Part shown: one piece after another, positions 433 through 37,025 of the stretch
How positions within the stretch are numbered: position 1 is the stretch's first letter
Layout of the letters: every line of letters starts with the position of its first letter
Source of the DNA: Chloroflexota bacterium
GTDB taxonomy: Bacteria; Chloroflexota; UBA11872
Assembly: GCA_026707585.1 (NCBI GenBank)
Contig: JAPOWQ010000052.1
Span: 1 to 37,025, forward strand
Direction: 5' to 3'
DNA: 37,025 nt
The notes under the pieces: model-generated
What the model saw: only the letters and a program-made list of their open reading frames with translations
Database searches by the model: none
What the model was told of the DNA's origin: nothing
Translations under genes and position numbers: made by a program

Positions 433-1200
433 ATGCAGGAGTTGGCTGGGCAGGTAGCGTTGGTGACGGGGGCTGGGACTGGGATTGGGCGGGCCAGTGC
501 GATTGCGCTGGCCGGGGAAGGCGCGGCGGTGGGGCTGGTTGGGCGGAGAGAGGGGCTGTTGGATGAGACGGCGGCCGTGGTTCGGGATGGGGGCGGCAGG
601 GCGTTGGCTCTTTCGGCCGACATAACCGAGCCGGAGGCCGCGCGCGAGGTGGTGGCCCGGACGGAGGCTGAGTTTGGGCGGCTGGACGTCCTGGTGAATA
701 ACGCCGGCGGGGGTAGCCGGTCGAGAACCGTGCGCAGGATCGAACCCGATGATTTCGAGGGCGTTCAGCGGCTCAACGTGACGGCCCCGCTGGTGCTGAC
801 GCAAGCGGCGTTGCCGGGAATGCTGGAACGGGGCAGCGGGACCGTCATCACCATTTCGTCGTACGCGGCCGTCACGTCCAGCCCGATGGCGGGCGTTGCC
901 TATGGCGCCGCCAAGGCGGCGGTGGCAAGCGTGATGAAGAGCGTCAACAACGAACTCCGAAGCAACGGACTGCGTGCCTGCACGATCTTTCCAGGGGAAG
1001 TTGACACGCCGATCCTGGAACGCCGCAAGCTGGTCCCGGACGCTGAGGCGCGCGCGACGATGATGCACTCCGAAGACCTGGCCGAGATCGTCCGGCTCTG
1101 CGCTTGCATGCCCGGCCGCACGCTAATCGAAGAAATCTATGTGCGTCCGACCCAATTGCGCGACCTCAGCGCCGATACGGAAGCGGCGCTAAAGACCTAG
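433..1200 (+). CDS. SDR-family NAD(P)-dependent oxidoreductase
   Basis: This is a 255-residue classical short-chain dehydrogenase/reductase, the usual length for the family, expected to be cytosolic and to oxidise or reduce an alcohol/ketone with NAD(P)(H). The TGxxxGxG cofactor motif is TGAGTGIG at residues 12-19. The NNAG motif lies near residue 89, a catalytic Ser near 143, and the YxxxK pair at Y157/K161, followed by the P-G motif (PGEVDTPI). The ATG is preceded by AGGTGGAG at good spacing. The substrate cannot be read from sequence. The convergent aldolase gene next door suggests sugar-acid or hydroxy-acid catabolism, but the two are not co-transcribed. Its TAG stop overlaps the aldolase stop on the other strand. 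Confidence 0.93.
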   Translation: MQELAGQVALVTGAGTGIGRASAIALAGEGAAVGLVGRREGLLDETAAVVRDGGGRALALSADITEPEAAREVVARTEAEFGRLDVLVNNAGGGSRSRTVRRIEPDDFEGVQRLNVTAPLVLTQAALPGMLERGSGTVITISSYAAVTSSPMAGVAYGAAKAAVASVMKSVNNELRSNGLRACTIFPGEVDTPILERRKLVPDAEARATMMHSEDLAEIVRLCACMPGRTLIEEIYVRPTQLRDLSADTEAALKT

Positions 1201-1946
1201 CGTCCGACCTTCGCCAGAAAGTCCTTGGCGCCTTCGGCTATCCAGGCGTTGAGGCCGGTGGTGACGAAGCCGACGCCCATGTCGACGTAGCGTTCGACGT
1301 TGGCGGAGGTGACCAGGGTGCCGGCGTGGCGGCCGGAGGCCACGATGGTGCCGAGGGCCTGGTCGATTACGGCCTGTACCTCGGGGTGCGTGGAGTCCAT
1401 GTGACCCAGGCTCTGGCCGAGGTCGCCGGGGGCGACGTAGAAGATGTCCACGCCTTCGACTTCCAGGATCTCGTCCAGGTTGTTCACGGCCAGGATGTCC
1501 TCGATGAGGATGATGGCCAGGCACTCGTCGTTGGCCCGCTCCAGGAAGTCGGAGACGCCGTAGCCCTGCCGGGAGGTGGTCATGCCCCGCTTGCCCACGG
1601 GATAAAACTTGGATGCGTCGGCGACGGCCTGGGCCTGGTCGCGGGTGTCCACGTGCGGCACGCAGACGCCCTGGGCGCCGAGGTCCAGCACGCGGTAGAT
1701 GGGGCCGTAGCGGTTCTCGTTGACGCGCACGATGGAGGTCATGCCCCAGAGGTCGGCGGCGCGCGACTGGTCGGGAATGTCGCGGTAGTCGAGCGGGCCG
1801 TGTTCGCCTTCGAGCCAGACGGAGTCGAAGCCGAGCGGGCCGAGCCACTCGATCAGGTCGGCCGTCATCCCGGTGCCCATGATGCCGGTGGCCAGCTCTC
1901 CGGCGGCGAGCTTGTGCTTGACGCGGTTCGGTCGCATTGAAGGCAT
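1197..1946 (-). CDS. HpcH/HpaI aldolase/citrate lyase family protein
   Basis: The product is a 249-residue class II (metal-dependent) aldolase of the HpcH/HpaI family, which cleaves 2-keto-3-deoxy acids or related 4-hydroxy-2-oxo acids to pyruvate plus an aldehyde. Active-site residues fall at nearly the canonical positions: H49 in GEHGP, R74, metal ligands E149 (ILIED) and D175 (APGDLG). I chose the ATG at 1946 because an in-frame extension to 2165 would translate the intergenic repeat. A second ATG at 1937 is also possible. No strong Shine-Dalgarno is visible. The stop codon shares bases with that of the convergent SDR gene. Exact substrate unknown. Confidence 0.9.
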   Translation of the reverse strand: MPSMRPNRVKHKLAAGELATGIMGTGMTADLIEWLGPLGFDSVWLEGEHGPLDYRDIPDQSRAADLWGMTSIVRVNENRYGPIYRVLDLGAQGVCVPHVDTRDQAQAVADASKFYPVGKRGMTTSRQGYGVSDFLERANDECLAIILIEDILAVNNLDEILEVEGVDIFYVAPGDLGQSLGHMDSTHPEVQAVIDQALGTIVASGRHAGTLVTSANVERYVDMGVGFVTTGLNAWIAEGAKDFLAKVGR

Positions 1947-2093
1947 TTGGTATGTCCACTGTCGGCAGTCACGGGCAGTGTGACTGACCTGCGGGGAAGC
2001 CGCCAGCAGTTTTGAGCGGACCTCTTCTGGCGAGCTCTGGGTAGCCCGGGGGCGGCGTGCGACGGGACTGGTCGCTGGACGTGGGCGCACGAC

Positions 2094-2170
2094 CCGGGGA
2101 CCCCTCACCGGTTTCGGCCGAAGACGCCCGAACCTGCCTCTCCCCTCGGAGAGGGTGAAGAGCACCGCGC
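2094..2170 (+). repeat. Structured intergenic repeat, copy A
   Basis: This is one copy of a two-hairpin repeat also found at 5623-5724, 5838-5936 and 36913-37025, all in the same orientation. Hairpin 1 has arms 2113-2120 and 2125-2132 around an AAGA loop, with one C-C mismatch. Hairpin 2 is a perfect 7-bp stem, CCTCTCC (2137-2143) with GGAGAGG (2148-2154). It lies upstream of the aldolase gene, not behind a gene end, so a pure terminator role does not fit this copy. A degenerate version of the upstream 'GTAGCCCG' part is visible around 2041-2060. Confidence 0.8.
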
Positions 2171-2344
2171 TCCATGGACATGGTCATCCGCACGCGGCTG
2201 TTGGCGCGTGGTCCGAGATGGGAAGCCCCCTCGTCCCCAGATCGAGTCCGAGGCAGGCTACGACTCTATCCACCGGATAACGGATGAAGAGGTCGGTCTG
2301 CCGAGTCTGGTTGTCGGACTCCGGGGGTTGGGGACGCCGGGGTG

Positions 2345-2588
2345 GTGGAACAGGCCTCGGACTATCTGTCGATCATCGAAATCCTGGACTGCCCCAGCAA
2401 TAACGTAGTGGTCACTGCCTCGCCGCACGGCTTCGGTGTCTCACCGGCCACGGACCAAGGTCGTCAGCGACCTGGTGCTCTACAGTGAGACCAACATCGA
2501 CATCGGCGGCCTAGGGCTGGCACGCTGCGCCGACGTCAGGCCCGATGGGCGCCGGCAGCTCGGCGTCGTATGCCGCGCGGAAGTCTAA
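2345..2588 (+). pseudogene. Possible frameshifted coding remnant
   Basis: Two adjacent plus-strand frames look protein-like where neither is a complete gene. The first reads VEQASDYLSIIEILDCPSNN and onward from 2345 to a stop at 2486. The second reads RTKVVSDLVLYSETNIDIGG and onward from about 2451 to a TAA at 2586-2588. A single indel between about 2430 and 2455 would join them. I do not recognise the family, and no start codon or Shine-Dalgarno is evident. The rest of the 1947-2731 gap holds repeat copy A and then, from 2589, a less GC-rich stretch without a gene. This may equally be chance. Confidence 0.2.
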
Positions 2589-2731
2589 GTTAAGCGGGAC
2601 TTGGGAAAGTTATCGTGCGCACGGGCTGCGCTACGTATTGACTGATCTTATTCGAAGAGCCAATAGCCGATTCGAAGCGCGATAGAAGTGCACGCCGATC
2701 CATTGGTTAAGCCCAAGTCAATGGCAAACGA

Positions 2732-3712
2732 CTACCCCTCGCCTTGGCCCCCAGCTTCTTGCATCTTCTCCAAGACATCTTCCAGGTATGGGCCGAACGT
2801 CGTACGGAATCTAGTGAGGTGATCGATCATCCAGATCCTGATCTGGTCCAGTTCGTTCTCGGGAGCGTCTATGTGCCCGGGTCGAGATACCACCACTCTG
2901 CTCATTTTCGCGTCATCCAATCGCTCCCAAGTCATCGGCCCAAGGCTCTCTTCGATCTCGGACCTGGATTCCTGTAGCAGGTCAAATGCAGCCTTGTTCC
3001 ACAGCTTTTCTGGACTCTTGATGACCAGTTCAACCCTAGCTTCTTCGTCCCAAGTGAACCTCATCGTGCGGCCGAACGCGCCAGAGTTAATGCCGGCGCC
3101 GGCGTTGTAGGACGATGCCTTATTGCGCGTTCCAATATTCCATCCGCGGGAGCTTCGCAAGTCCTCTAGCAGCGGGCGCCAGAAGCGGATGTAACTCTCT
3201 TGCCTTGGGGTCAGCTCAGCCTGACTCTCCGCGACATCCTTCGACCATGTGTTGGGAGCAGCTGCCAAACGAAACAGTGGTGCAGGCAGTGAATCGCCTA
3301 TTCTCACCGCGTCAATCTCGATTCCGAAGAAGCTCAGCGAGTCTTTGGTTCCCTCGTTGAGCCAATCCAGCGCAGCCCGGTGCTCGTCACGGAATTCAGT
3401 AGCTATCCACACCACGACGCTGGCATTTTTGCCGGCTGAATATGTCAGCAACTGGCCCAAATGCGTATGGTCGGTGTTGGCAATTTGGTTTTCGATGGCA
3501 ACAACGGCTTCACTGTTGGCATCTCTGGCGAGGATGTCAAGGGAAAAGTTCCCTACAGGTACCTCCATACCCTCCAATTCCAGTTCCATGCCGAGCTCAT
3601 TGCCAAGCAGCGTCAGGTTCTCTGCCAGCCACGGAGTAAAGTCGTTGGCCTCGTGTGGCCAGACGCTCGTAATGGGAACTTTCTCAATACTTCCGATTCG
3701 AATCTGAGTCAT
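2732..3712 (-). CDS. DUF4268 domain protein (PD-(D/E)XK nuclease-like)
   Basis: The 326-residue protein begins at the ATG at 3712, which has a clear GGAGG about ten bases upstream. A longer in-frame extension to 3925 would run through a tRNA-like sequence and is rejected. The N-terminal half fits the DUF4268 family: FTPWLAENL at residues 25-33, a nuclease-like core with D59 (LDILA) and E74-N-Q76 (VAIENQ), then TDHTHLGQLLTYSAG and the VVWIATEF strand. This arrangement resembles PD-(D/E)XK nucleases, with Q in place of the usual Lys. The C-terminal half (about 165-326) is a second alpha/beta domain seen in the family. Such proteins often occur in defence or mobile regions. No partner methylase or helicase is present. 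Base composition is lower in GC than its neighbours, suggesting acquisition. Confidence 0.85.
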   Translation of the reverse strand: MTQIRIGSIEKVPITSVWPHEANDFTPWLAENLTLLGNELGMELELEGMEVPVGNFSLDILARDANSEAVVAIENQIANTDHTHLGQLLTYSAGKNASVVVWIATEFRDEHRAALDWLNEGTKDSLSFFGIEIDAVRIGDSLPAPLFRLAAAPNTWSKDVAESQAELTPRQESYIRFWRPLLEDLRSSRGWNIGTRNKASSYNAGAGINSGAFGRTMRFTWDEEARVELVIKSPEKLWNKAAFDLLQESRSEIEESLGPMTWERLDDAKMSRVVVSRPGHIDAPENELDQIRIWMIDHLTRFRTTFGPYLEDVLEKMQEAGGQGEG

Positions 3713-3747
3713 TTTGGGAGGTCCTCCATCAGGCAGAGAATCTGTGC

Positions 3748-3820
3748 TGGACCCAGGCGGACTCGAACTGACGATCCTCTCAGTGCCATTGAGACGCTTT
3801 TCCGGCCAAGCCATGGGCCT
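3748..3820 (-). tRNA. Degenerate tRNA-Ala(GGC)-like gene
   Basis: The minus strand folds as a 73-nt cloverleaf. The acceptor arm pairs 6 of 7 positions and includes G3-U70, the alanine identity pair; A1-C72 is mismatched. The D stem GCTT/AAGC encloses GGCCGGAA with G18-G19. The anticodon stem TCTCA/TGAGA encloses ATGGCAC, giving U33, anticodon GGC, A37 and the A32 typical of tRNA-Ala(GGC). The T loop TTCGAGT is canonical. Defects are two mismatches in the T stem (GTCAG with CCGCC), position 14 not A, C38, and no encoded CCA. It ends 35 bases before the DUF4268 start codon, on the same strand. It is either a decayed tRNA copy left by an integration or a divergent functional tRNA. The remaining bases to 4055 hold nothing I can name. 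Confidence 0.5.
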
Positions 3821-4055
3821 CGGAGACGACATTATGCCCCGCTGGCAGGCGTGGCCATGGCATCGCTCTCTGTCTCCTGGACGAGGCCTCGTTGACGGGG
3901 AGCGTGGGGTGCGGCAACTGAGCAAAGCTCTCTCCGAGAGCGGGGGTAGGAGCCATCACGCCTTTGGGGACGATTGGGGTTGGGTGCAGGTGTCGCTTGG
4001 GACGGCGGGGGTGGAATGGCGTAGGCTCACGCGGTCGCGTGGATAGGTGAAGGCC

Positions 4056-5507
4056 ATGCCCGAGCGCAAACCGCACATCCTGATGCTGATCAATGACGAG
4101 CACCGCCCGGACGTGATGCCGATCGAGGGCGACCCGCACATCCGCACGCCGACGCTGGATTGGATGATCGACGGGGGTTTCTATTTCCGAAACGCCTACA
4201 CGCCGTCGCCCATTTGCGTGCCGGCGCGACAGGCCTTTCTTTCAGGGCTCTATCCCCGGAATTGCGGTTGCGCGAACTTCGGCGACGCGATGCCGAGCGA
4301 GGTGCTGACGATTCCGGGACACCTCTCGCGCTACGGCTACACGACCTGCGCGGCCGGCAAAATGCACTTCGTGGGGCCGGACCAGATGCACGGCTGGCAC
4401 CAGCGCATCGGGCGCGACATCGTGGGCCGCAACGGCTACGAGCCGGCGGACGATCCCGAGCACCAGGCCCTGATCGAACGAGATCCCGGCACGGGGTCCT
4501 GGCCGGACAAGGTGAAGCAGGAAATCAGGTACGCGCGGGCCGGACGCGGGCACTGGATGCAGCACGACCGCTACTCGGTGGACGGCGCGCTGATGTTCCT
4601 GGATGAGCACTTCGTGAACGAGCCGTACGACCGGACCAACCCCGCCCCGCTGCTGCTGGCGGTGAGCCTGTGGTCGCCGCATTACCCCTACCAATGCCCG
4701 GACGACCTGTTCGCCTACTACCTGCGCCGGGTCAAGCCCTTCGAGGAGGACGTGCCGGAGCACTTCGAGTGCCCGGACTTCTTCAAGGTCGAGGTGGGGA
4801 AGGACGTGACCTACCGCGAGGCGCACCGGGCCACGGCGGCGTACTACGGGATGATCGAGTGGATGGACGCGCAGTTCGCCCGGGTGATCGACAAGCTGCG
4901 CGAACTGGACGTGCTGGACGACTTCGCCATCGTGTTCCTGTCCGACCACGGCGAGATGCTGGGCCAGAAGGGCCTGTGGGAGAAGCAGCAGTACTTCGAG
5001 GGGTCGGCGCGCGTGCCGTTTGCCGTGCGCTGGCCGCAGCGGTACCCGCAGGGCGGCGCCACCGTTCAGCGCAACGTCTCGCTGGTGGACCTGTTTCCGA
5101 CGCTTTGCGACATCGCCAACGTGCCGATACCGGAAGGGCTGGACGGCCGCTCGGTTGCGCCACTGCTGGAGGGGAAGGACGAGGACTGGCCGGACGACGT
5201 CTACAGCGAGCTCTGGGCCGTGCACAACGGGCCCTCCGTGATGGTGAAGCACGGCGAAATGAAGCTGTTCCGGTTTGACGGTCATGAGGGCACACCCGGA
5301 CTGGGTCCGGATTGCCCCGAGCAGCTCTTTGACCTGGCGCGCGATCCCGATGAGACCACAAACCTGATCGACCACCCGGACTACGCGGACCGGCTGGCGG
5401 ATTTGCGCGCCCGGCTGGATGCGCTGCCCGATCCGCGGAAGAAGGATGCGAACAACCGCTTCGTCGGCGAGGAACGCGAGCCGTATGTGCCACGCCGCAG
5501 GGCTTAG
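4056..5507 (+). CDS. Type I sulfatase (formylglycine-dependent)
   Basis: The 483-residue enzyme hydrolyses sulfate esters. The sulfatase signature C-x-P-x-R is C54-V-P-A-R58 in SPICVPARQAFLSGLYP; C54 would be oxidised to formylglycine by a maturase not seen in this window. Metal ligands are expected at N13/D14 near the N terminus (LINDEHRPD) and at D297-H298 (LSDHGEMLG), followed by the family block GLWEKQQYFEGSARVPF. The ATG at 4056 has AGGTGAAGG just upstream; a GTG at 4047 in the same frame is possible. There is no signal peptide, so it is probably cytosolic, which fits choline-sulfatase-like or intracellular glycan sulfatases. Substrate not determinable. The gene stands alone. Confidence 0.92.
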   Translation: MPERKPHILMLINDEHRPDVMPIEGDPHIRTPTLDWMIDGGFYFRNAYTPSPICVPARQAFLSGLYPRNCGCANFGDAMPSEVLTIPGHLSRYGYTTCAAGKMHFVGPDQMHGWHQRIGRDIVGRNGYEPADDPEHQALIERDPGTGSWPDKVKQEIRYARAGRGHWMQHDRYSVDGALMFLDEHFVNEPYDRTNPAPLLLAVSLWSPHYPYQCPDDLFAYYLRRVKPFEEDVPEHFECPDFFKVEVGKDVTYREAHRATAAYYGMIEWMDAQFARVIDKLRELDVLDDFAIVFLSDHGEMLGQKGLWEKQQYFEGSARVPFAVRWPQRYPQGGATVQRNVSLVDLFPTLCDIANVPIPEGLDGRSVAPLLEGKDEDWPDDVYSELWAVHNGPSVMVKHGEMKLFRFDGHEGTPGLGPDCPEQLFDLARDPDETTNLIDHPDYADRLADLRARLDALPDPRKKDANNRFVGEEREPYVPRRRA

Positions 5508-5622
5508 CGCGGGGAGCGGAGGATCTCGGATATCGGCTTTCCTATTGGCTAGGCGCTTGTCTGGCGGGTGCGGGTGGCGCCTGGCGTTTGTCTGCACCGG
5601 GGGACTGGCCGAAAAAGAGACG

Positions 5623-5724
5623 TCTGCGTAACCCGAAAGTGGTTGCCCGGAAGACCCCTCACCGGTTTCAGCCGAAGACGGCTGAACCTGCCTCTTCCCC
5701 AGGAGAGGGGAAAGACCGGCGTCC
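5623..5724 (+). repeat. Structured intergenic repeat, copy B
   Basis: The copy starts with the TGCGTA...TGCCCGGAAGACCCC leader shared with the other copies. Hairpin 1 is perfect: TTCAGCCG (5667-5674), AAGA loop, CGGCTGAA (5679-5686). Hairpin 2 (about 5690-5708) pairs CCTCTTCC with GGAGAGG with one bulged T. It lies about 115 bases behind the sulfatase stop. The first 115 bases of the gap (5508-5622) hold nothing recognisable. Confidence 0.85.
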
Positions 5725-5754
5725 CCTTGAATAGATTGAGACCGAGCAAAGTTG

Positions 5755-5830
5755 CTCTCCCCCAGGGAGACCTTTGCGTAGCCCGAGGGTGGGTGCCCGG
5801 AAGACCCTTACCCCAGACCTCGCCCACGGG
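5755..5830 (+). repeat. Partial repeat, copy C
   Basis: This is a truncated member of the same family. It has a small TCTCCC/GGGAGA hairpin at about 5756-5770, then the leader TGCGTAGCCCGAGG and TGCCCGGAAGACCC (5776-5807). It lacks hairpin 1 and passes directly into copy D. That arrangement suggests tandem growth or deletion within the array. Confidence 0.7.
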
Positions 5831-5837
5831 AAGCCTC

Positions 5838-5936
5838 TGCGTATCCCGACGTTGGTTGCCCGGAAGACCCCTCACCGATTTCCGCCGGGGACGGCGGAAT
5901 CTGCCTCTCCCCTTGGAGAGGGTGAAGAGCGCCGCG
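5838..5936 (+). repeat. Structured intergenic repeat, copy D
   Basis: The leader TGCGTATCCCGA...TGCCCGGAAGACCCC is followed by a perfect 8-bp hairpin 1, TTCCGCCG (5880-5887), GGGA loop, CGGCGGAA (5892-5899). Hairpin 2 is also perfect: CCTCTCC (5904-5910), CCTT loop, GGAGAGG (5915-5921), then GGTGAAGAG. The hairpin 1 stem differs from copy B at a base on each arm in a way that keeps pairing. Confidence 0.85.
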
Positions 5937-5989
5937 CCTCTGAGAGGTTGGAGTCCGTCCGCAGGTGCTGGGGCGTGGATCGAGACCGG

Positions 5990-6137
5990 AAGCCGCCGCA
6001 CCTTCGCGGACGCCGTAGGTTTTGCACAGGTCTCTCGAGGGAGAGTGAGGAAGAGGCTGCGCTGGCGAGGGCCAGGCGAGGTTTGCAAGGGTCTCTCCCC
6101 TGGGAGAGGGTGAAGATCCGCCGCACCTTCAAGGACG
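5990..6137 (+). repeat. Two tandem hairpin modules upstream of MDR gene
   Basis: A unit of about 100-125 bases occurs twice. In each a TTTGCA run precedes a CTCTC...GAGAG hairpin, at 6031-6046 (CTCTC/GAGAG) and 6091-6108 (CTCTCC/GGAGAG), followed by GTGAgGAAGA or GTGAAGA. The phrase CCGCCGCACCTTC appears at 5995-6007 and again at 6119-6131. These modules share hairpin 2 with the larger repeat but lack hairpin 1. The last one ends about 40 bases before the next start codon and could affect its transcript leader. Confidence 0.6.
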
Positions 6138-6177
6138 ATGGGCTTAACGCAAAGGTTTCATCAAGGGAGGACTGCAC

Positions 6178-36854: not shown

Positions 36855-36912
36855 GCGAGCGTTCAGCGGATGGGGCCGTGCGGCGGCGATGGCGCCTTCG
36901 ACCGAGAGACCC

Positions 36913-37025
36913 TTGCGTAGCCGGAGGCTGGTTGCCCGGAAGGCCCCGTACCGATTTCGGCCGAAGACGCCCGAACCCCGGATCGAGTCCGGGGCAGGTT
37001 CTGCCTCTCCCCTCGGAGAGGGTGA
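36913..37025 (+). repeat. Structured intergenic repeat, copy E (cut by window end)
   Basis: The leader TTGCGTAGCCGGAGG...TTGCCCGGAAGGCCC is followed by hairpin 1 (36956-36963 with 36968-36975, one mismatch). An inserted third hairpin follows, CCCCGGA-TCGAG-TCCGGGG (36976-36994), then hairpin 2 CCTCTCC (37004-37010) with GGAGAGG (37015-37021). It begins about 58 bases behind the phnA stop. Confidence 0.85.

What the first reader, a model, noticed from the sequence alone, without database searches (positions are those of the whole stretch)
3732..3830. Degenerate tRNA-Ala(GGC) directly before a DUF4268 gene
A cloverleaf with anticodon GGC, G3-U70, U33 and the A32 typical of this isoacceptor is visible but has T-stem and A1-C72 mismatches and no CCA. 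Its 3' end lies 35 bases from the start of a lower-GC nuclease-like gene on the same strand. That is the arrangement expected when an element integrates at a tRNA gene and leaves a damaged copy. Alternatively it is a divergent working tRNA.
Basis: partly seen in the sequence, partly recalled or inferred. Interest (0 to 1): 0.52.

Follow-up and report, generated by a model that had tools for sequence, protein, structure and literature searches.

The report
Dead tRNA-Ala beside transplanted defence gene
This stretch holds a decayed copy of an alanine tRNA gene that arrived together with a probable anti-virus nuclease gene, a fragment of a tRNA-based landing site where related bacteria collect defence genes between repeated tRNA copies.

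Summary
Window 3748-3820(-) is a tRNA-Ala(GGC)-derived sequence (Rfam 38.8 bits, gathering 29). It has an A1-C72 mismatch, two broken T-stem pairs and no CCA, and lies 35 nt before a low-GC DUF4268 gene.

It is very probably a pseudogene. The genome has an intact tRNA-Ala(GGC) elsewhere, and the copy drifts no more slowly than the non-coding DNA beside it.

A block of about 1.6 kb (oxidoreductase-gene fragment, DUF4268, dead tRNA with its promoter region) sits between native sequences and is missing at this site in three congeners. The same block, 83% identical, occurs in a sister-genus genome inside a tRNA-Ala(GGC) hotspot, where tRNA copies alternate with defence genes. Vertical genes there are only 69-74% identical, so the block moved horizontally. 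DUF4268 (PADLOC PDC-S11; predicted NucS/EndoMS-like nuclease domain) is under purifying selection (dN/dS 0.11).

In one congener a 4.1 kb restriction-modification cassette is flanked by a 106-bp, 99%-identical repeat of promoter plus whole tRNA. No tyrosine integrase was found within 10 kb of any tRNA-Ala copy. Additive tRNA islands are known; whole-gene repeats without an integrase make this a variant.

The parts
3748..3820 (-). tRNA-Ala(GGC) pseudogene (relic copy); sequence continues GCA at 3745-3747 where intact copies have CCA
   Evidence: ARAGORN; Rfam; alignment to intact copies; neutral drift; fold
3821..3850 (-). promoter region of the tRNA copy (contains CATAAT), homologous to the 30 bp upstream of sister-genus tRNA-Ala(GGC) genes and not to the upstream of this genome's own intact gene
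   Evidence: the sigma-70 consensus scan found no match
3851..3919 (-). tail of the preceding cassette in the donor hotspot (sequence that follows the 'cargo A' lipoprotein gene in G014, G015, G017)
   Evidence: the ORF of cargo A in L074 ends at 1668, which aligns with window 3919
3713..3747 (-). 35-nt leader between relic tRNA and DUF4268, with a GGAGG ribosome-binding-like site at 3723-3727
2732..3712 (-). DUF4268 gene, 326 aa, PADLOC PDC-S11 defence candidate; predicted N-terminal PD-(D/E)XK-like nuclease domain
2571..2731 (-). non-coding DNA after DUF4268, homologous to G017 up to 16 nt before the second tRNA copy there
2336..2564 (+). 3'-end fragment of a DAO-family FAD oxidoreductase gene, the far-side flank of the sister-genus hotspot
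   Evidence: DAO identity of the full gene in G014
2270..2330 (.). native intergenic DNA on the left (homologous in G006 and G001); about 10-bp microhomology at the junction
3922..4046 (.). native intergenic DNA on the right, before the sulfatase gene
1197..2165 (-). native HpcH/HpaI aldolase ORF (left neighbour; its 5' part overlaps a dispersed repeat)
4047..5507 (+). native sulfatase gene (right neighbour)

Best explanation
The feature is a tRNA-Ala(GGC) pseudogene that came with its neighbour. In the sister genus g2 the tRNA-Ala(GGC) gene is a landing site: small cassettes sit between its 3' end and the 3' end of a convergent DAO gene, and copies of the tRNA with its promoter region separate the cassettes. 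A piece of such an array (DAO end, DUF4268, tRNA copy with promoter, tail of the preceding cassette) was transferred to this genome and inserted by illegitimate recombination between an aldolase and a sulfatase gene. The tRNA part is redundant and decays; the DUF4268 gene is kept as a probable single-gene anti-phage nuclease. Shown: pseudogene features, intact copy elsewhere, insertion against congeners, shared block with G017, selection on DUF4268, tRNA-flanked cassettes in relatives. Inferred: direction of transfer, microhomology joining, defence function, and that arrays grow by recombination between the tRNA copy of a circular cassette and the chromosomal tRNA, using a recombinase supplied in trans or general recombination.
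For: Intact tRNA-Ala(GGC) at C4. Block 2571-3919 matches G017:C15 at 83.5% over 1,355 bp, whereas the three C4 blocks of 0.9-2.6 kb that match G017 are 68.9-73.5%. Full block in 2 of 400 phylum genomes, this one and G017. G011, G008 and G009 have 52-70 bp where the window has about 1.8 kb. Relic 50/73 identical to the G017 copy against 118/161 and 26/35 in adjacent non-coding DNA; DUF4268 dN/dS 0.114. Relic repeat extent -30 to 78 relative to the tRNA, as in G010, G014, G015, G017b and G017d. G010: 106-bp repeat, 99.1%, around a 4.1 kb R-M cassette, single tRNA in G004, G006 and G001. PADLOC hits at E below 1e-10 in 8 of 11 tRNA-Ala-linked intervals tested.
Against: In the window no second tRNA copy flanks DUF4268, so nothing here shows how the block entered. 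In G017 a tRNA relic and a 430-aa ORF lie between DUF4268 and DAO; their absence here needs a deletion or a different donor allele. The G017 array is spread over two contigs. DUF4268 homologues are not generally beside tRNAs: 1 of 60 loci within 1.5 kb. No experiment shows defence activity.
Confidence: 0.8

Rival explanations
1. A divergent but working second tRNA-Ala(GGC), kept for a special role.
For: ARAGORN and Rfam still call it; anticodon stem-loop, D stem and G3-U70 are intact.
Against: A1-C72 and two T-stem mismatches, no CCA; 68.5% identity to its G017 counterpart, below its non-coding flanks; the G017 counterpart has an altered anticodon; an intact copy is present.
Confidence: 0.04
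2. A prophage, ICE or satellite with its own integrase inserted at this tRNA and left the damaged copy as attR or attL.
For: tRNA genes are common integration sites; several tRNA-Ala(CGC) copies in relatives are 3' fragments starting at tRNA position 11-26, as an attR would be.
Against: No PF00589 match on this contig, or within 10 kb of any tRNA-Ala copy listed for the 19 family genomes (compared by eye); DUF4268 protein not found in IMG/VR and only distant in 4 phage records; this is not the native tRNA site.
Confidence: 0.08
3. The relic tRNA is kept as the promoter and leader of DUF4268: the cassette gene is expressed from the tRNA promoter.
For: All the tRNA-side cargo genes examined that have a clear start lie downstream on the tRNA strand; the promoter region is better conserved (33/40) than the relic (50/73); CATAAT is unchanged here and in G015b and G017d; GGAGG site before the ATG.
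Against: 33/40 against 241/334 for the other non-coding columns is a small difference on few bases; consensus promoter scan negative; G017b has lost the -10-like box.
Confidence: 0.35
4. The block arose inside this genome by rearrangement from its own tRNA-Ala(GGC) locus.
For: The genome has an intact copy and DAO-like genes at C61 and C31.
Against: Upstream 30 bp match g2 genes, not the own C4 gene (window vs own C4 aligns only tRNA positions 2-73); DUF4268 is closest to G017 (90%) and the own paralogue is 43%.
Confidence: 0.07

Closest known systems
Additive flexible genomic islands at tRNA genes (Alteromonas, PMC4119200; Ca. Actinomarinales, PMC7771536; Methylophilaceae fGI-2, PMC10872708; passages read)
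   Same: A conserved tRNA is the target for small cassettes that differ between strains; direct repeats of tRNA sequence mark cassette ends; cassette exchange between genera is reported in Actinomarinales.
   Different: There the repeats are described as part of the tRNA (20 bp of tRNA-Lys; last 52 nt of tRNA-Leu; 'part of the tRNA gene'). Here the GGC repeats cover the promoter region and whole tRNA. The window block is no longer at a tRNA locus.
Core defence hotspots of Pseudomonas aeruginosa (cDHS, PMC10250203; passages read)
   Same: Defence genes accumulate at fixed sites with a tRNA or tmRNA in the flank; the authors compare them with additive islands.
   Different: The passages read do not describe repeated whole tRNA copies between single defence cassettes.
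Tycheposons (recalled as Hackl et al. 2023, not read; described in passages of PMC10872708)
   Same: tRNA at the border, cargo genes exchanged at that place.
   Different: Described there with a tyrosine recombinase; none found within 10 kb of the tRNA-Ala copies here.
Integrase-less islands with direct repeats, E. coli H47 GI (PMC5426353; abstract and passages read)
   Same: A mobile island without its own recombinase, flanked by direct repeats of about 145 bp; excision was RecA-independent in E. coli.
   Different: No tRNA is mentioned in that text; excision has not been tested here.
PADLOC PDC-S11 / Pfam DUF4268
   Same: Window protein matches PDC-S11 over its length (E 5.1e-102).
   Different: PDC is a candidate class; no function was tested here. 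DUF4268 is also fused to GmrSD type IV restriction domains in other proteins (PMC4619093, passage read).

Membership tests
functional tRNA-Ala(GGC) | covariance score above the Rfam gathering score | tested here: met
   38.8 against 29 bits
functional tRNA-Ala(GGC) | paired acceptor and T stems, CCA as in the other copies of this lineage | tested here: not met
   A1-C72, two T-stem mismatches, GCA in place of CCA
functional tRNA-Ala(GGC) | constraint above neutral flanks | tested here: not met
   50/73 against 118/161 and 26/35 in flanks
additive tRNA-linked genomic island (the family-level hotspot) | conserved tRNA with different cassettes at the same site in different genomes | tested here: met
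   g2 tRNA-Ala(GGC) to DAO interval holds different genes in G013, G014, G015, G017 and G018
additive tRNA-linked genomic island (the family-level hotspot) | direct repeat of tRNA sequence at the cassette end | tested here: met
   G010 106 bp at 99.1%; G014, G015, G017 older copies
additive tRNA-linked genomic island (the window block itself) | inserted at a native tRNA, repeat on the far side | tested here: not met
   empty site in congeners has no tRNA; no far-side copy
integrase-driven element (prophage, ICE, tycheposon) | tyrosine recombinase near the attachment tRNA | tested here: not met
   0 PF00589 matches within 10 kb of tRNA-Ala copies in 19 genomes; nearest G013:C2, 10.6 kb away on the upstream side
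integrase-driven element (prophage, ICE, tycheposon) | serine recombinase or transposase near the tRNA | tested here: inconclusive
   none among the cassette ORFs run against Pfam, but not every ORF was run
PDC-S11 / DUF4268 | profile match over the protein | tested here: met
   PDLC04911 3-311 of 325 aa, E 5.1e-102; Pfam DUF4268 E 3.7e-15
PD-(D/E)XK nuclease | fold and acidic motif in the N-terminal domain | tested here: met
   AlphaFold model pLDDT 82.6; NucS/EndoMS domain Z 12.5, rmsd 2.1 over 103 residues of model 20-136; D59, E74, N75 and Q76 invariant in 31 sequences. Activity not tested.

The most novel reading that the evidence does not exclude
In this family of Chloroflexota a housekeeping tRNA gene with its promoter is the repeated unit of an integrase-free cassette system. 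Each cassette is [promoter-tRNA + defence or surface gene]; circles recombine with the chromosomal tRNA through about 106 bp of identity; the tRNA promoter supplies expression to the newest cassette, as an integron Pc does; old tRNA copies rot in place and can travel on with their cargo, as in this window.
Probability: 0.22. Interest if true: 0.72.

Novelty: new variant of a known kind. Interest (0 to 1): 0.45.

Why it matters
tRNA genes are classic landing sites, but the usual scar is a 3' fragment made by an integrase. Here whole tRNA genes with their promoter region repeat between single defence cassettes, without an integrase in sight, in an uncultured lineage. If real, it links three things that can be tested together: how small defence cassettes move without a recombinase of their own, how they are expressed on arrival, and why such genomes carry extra weak tRNA-Ala calls. 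It also warns annotators that some tRNA calls of 35-45 bits mark past insertions.

Tried and rejected
Looked for a direct repeat of the tRNA 3' end beyond DUF4268 in the window: none (nhmmer with four tRNA-Ala rows). Looked for the block or protein in viral, phage and plasmid records: IMG/VR none; 4 phage records and 68 plasmid records, all below 60% identity. Tested whether DUF4268 is generally a tRNA-linked gene: ARAGORN found a tRNA within 1.5 kb in 1 of 60 loci (G017); two more loci have a tRNA about 3 kb away; 4 of the 64 loci at hand were not given to that call. The close relative L171 (77% aa, sponge-type Chloroflexi record title APA_bin_48) shares only the coding sequence and has no tRNA call.

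Promoter scan of 3600-4050 gave no sigma-70 match. The idea that the promoter is selectively kept rests on 33/40 against 241/334 columns and is not pressed. A sequence-profile search of solved structures gave nothing below E 0.3; only the fold comparison was informative. The C-terminal domain resembles YbjN / secretion-chaperone folds at Z 7-8, within the tool's own range for common arrangements, so no claim is made.

The DAO 3' end beside tRNA-Val in g1 and the 0.5-kb DAO repeat in G013 suggest a second kind of anchor, not pursued. Serine recombinases and transposases were not searched genome-wide. Paper searches found no text describing whole promoter-plus-tRNA repeats between defence cassettes; these searches cover open PMC text only.

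Full report
Observation. ARAGORN and Rfam both find a tRNA-Ala(GGC)-like sequence at window 3748-3820 on the minus strand. At 38.8 bits it is above the gathering score of 29 but far below the window's normal tRNA-Arg (65.5 bits). In a whole-genome scan of G000 it is one of 9 hits under 45 bits among 57 hits listed at E up to 10. The DUF4268 start codon lies 35 nt downstream, with a GGAGG site before it.

It is a pseudogene. The genome has an intact tRNA-Ala(GGC) on contig C4 at 11487; an identical 75-bp sequence is present in 11 of the 12 other congeners or nearly so (100% in 10, 96% in G003), and G012 showed none. The window copy is 50/73 identical to its positional counterpart in G017, while the non-coding DNA around it is 118/161 downstream, 26/35 in the leader and 47/65 upstream; the promoter region is 33/40. 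The tRNA part therefore drifts like, or faster than, its non-coding neighbours. The two copies have decayed differently: the G017 copy has an altered anticodon. The relic's best fold is not a cloverleaf.

It is not the native tRNA locus. Searching 8.6 kb of the window in its genus (13 genomes) shows the aldolase side and the sulfatase side almost joined in G011, G008 and G009, with 52, 68 and 70 bp between them. The other congeners that hold the site have other spacer lengths, and none has the DUF4268 block. G006 and G001 keep native sequence matching window 2270-2324, and G010 and G012 keep native sequence from window 3922 and 3932. The foreign block is thus about 2336-3919. At the left joint native and foreign sequences share about 10 bp of near-identity, which suggests illegitimate joining; this is an inference from one joint.

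The block comes from a tRNA-Ala hotspot. G017, a sister-genus genome, holds window 2571-3919 at 83.5% over 1,355 bp. There it lies between tRNA-Ala copies: a copy at L074 1031-1105, a 0.66 kb cassette, a degenerate copy at 1768-1841, the DUF4268 gene, another degenerate copy at 3038-3111, a 430-aa ORF, and then the end of a convergent DAO gene that matches window 2336-2564. Homology with the window runs to 16 nt before the second degenerate copy and then breaks, so the far-side tRNA, the ORF and the last codons of DAO are missing here. The upstream tail of the window copy (3851-3919) is shared with the copies that follow the same cassette in G014, G015 and G017.

It moved horizontally. The three C4 blocks of 0.9 kb or more that match G017 around the native tRNA are 68.9, 73.5 and 72.9% identical. 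The full block was found in 2 of 400 phylum genomes. Of 41 class genomes 23 have some DUF4268 relative at E 1e-10, but only G017 has a close one (90%); the other congeners have at most 48%. The 30 bp upstream of the relic match sister-genus promoters and not this genome's own gene. Direction of transfer is inferred.

The wider pattern. In the family (19 genomes), 11 have at least one extra tRNA-Ala copy besides the intact genes (with for detail). Across 23 pairwise comparisons, 6 of 7 within-family GGC copies begin at -21 to -30 and end at tRNA position 75-79; the window copy against the G017 intact gene spans -30 to 78. Of 14 CGC copies, 13 begin at -8 or later, some as 3' fragments (positions 11, 16, 26), which looks like ordinary attachment scars. 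The cleanest case is G010: two perfect tRNA-Ala(GGC) genes 4,183 bp apart, with a 106-bp direct repeat of 99.1% identity, enclosing an N6 methylase, an MT-A70 methylase and a third gene; G004, G006 and G001 have a single tRNA at that place with about 91% identical left flanks. The GGC intervals richest in defence genes have 53-56% GC, against 65% for the window.

Cargo. I ran ORFs of 11 tRNA-Ala-linked intervals against PADLOC; 8 have a hit below 1e-10: GGC in G010, G014, G015, G017, G018; CGC in G001, G010, G014. Three do not: GGC in G013, CGC in G008 and G000. The intervals were chosen as they came to hand, not at random. Other cargo includes RCC1-repeat proteins in G011 (and RCC1/LRR repeats in an ORF at the start of the G017:C15 contig) and a small lipoprotein-like cassette.

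No integrase near. All 19 genomes have PF00589 matches, but comparing their places with the tRNA-Ala copies by eye gives none within 10 kb; the nearest is G013:C2 at 10.6 kb, on the upstream side. In the same genome as the window, integrases do lie beside tRNA-Leu, tRNA-Gly and tRNA-Arg, so the search can see such pairs. Serine recombinases were not searched genome-wide.

The gene. DUF4268 is kept: dN 0.057, dS 0.499, ratio 0.114 against G017. It matches PADLOC candidate PDC-S11 over its length. The model (31 sequences, pLDDT 82.6) has an N-terminal domain close to NucS/EndoMS (Z 12.5, rmsd 2.1, 103 residues) with D59, E74, N75 and Q76 invariant. A phage-restricting nuclease is the likely role, untested.

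Mechanism. Most likely: cassettes carrying a promoter-tRNA copy recombine, as circles or linear pieces, with the chromosomal tRNA-Ala(GGC), giving tRNA-cassette-tRNA. One copy stays under selection, the others decay. Later a piece of one array was carried into this genome and joined at an unrelated site. The repeat structure is shown; circles, recombinase and expression from the tRNA promoter are inferred.

Compared with what is known. Additive islands at tRNAs with partial tRNA repeats are described in Alteromonas, Actinomarinales and Methylophilaceae (passages of PMC4119200, PMC7771536, PMC10872708), and defence hotspots at tRNAs in Pseudomonas (passages of PMC10250203). Integrase-less islands with direct repeats exist (PMC5426353, abstract and passages). 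The variant here is repeats of promoter plus whole tRNA, without an integrase found. The window itself is a displaced, decayed fragment of such a system. Searches of open papers for this arrangement returned no description of it; subscription papers are not covered.

Noticed in passing
window 2083-2230, 5616-6160, 36905-36977: Members of a dispersed short repeat family with many copies in this genome and across the genus; one copy overlaps the 5' part of the aldolase ORF and lies at the insertion region.
   Followed up: partly
L077 4930-5005; L076 476-550 and 8045-8119; L075 7630-7705 and 9579-9640; L062 4999-5072: This genome also carries five degenerate tRNA-Ala(CGC)-like copies on contigs C23, C40 and C24, besides one intact gene.
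   Followed up: partly
L072 886-1409 and 5338-5860: G013 has about 0.5 kb of the DAO 3' end duplicated around a pair of AAA-ATPase genes of about 4 kb, as if the DAO end were a second anchor for insertions.
   Followed up: no
L098 3659-3842 (G000:C31:11658-11841): A DAO 3' end lies convergent to tRNA-Val(GAC) in this genome, and the two sit close together in other congeners.
   Followed up: no
L208 1509-6139: In G011 two RCC1-repeat protein genes are separated by tRNA-Ala(CGC) copies, so cargo is not only defence.
   Followed up: no
G000:C44:6800, C30:3300, C65:342775: Tyrosine integrases lie beside tRNA-Leu(GAG), tRNA-Gly(GCC) and tRNA-Arg(TCT), probably ordinary islands.
   Followed up: no
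L073 8331-8463 and 9078-9153: In G006 a GGC-like copy, an inverted relic and the intact tRNA-Ala(CGC) lie within 0.9 kb, in opposite orientations.
   Followed up: no
L050 2027-2101 (G000:C68): An unusual tRNA-His-like call with anticodon ATG on a contig that also has a second tRNA-Gly(GCC); possibly from a mobile element.
   Followed up: no
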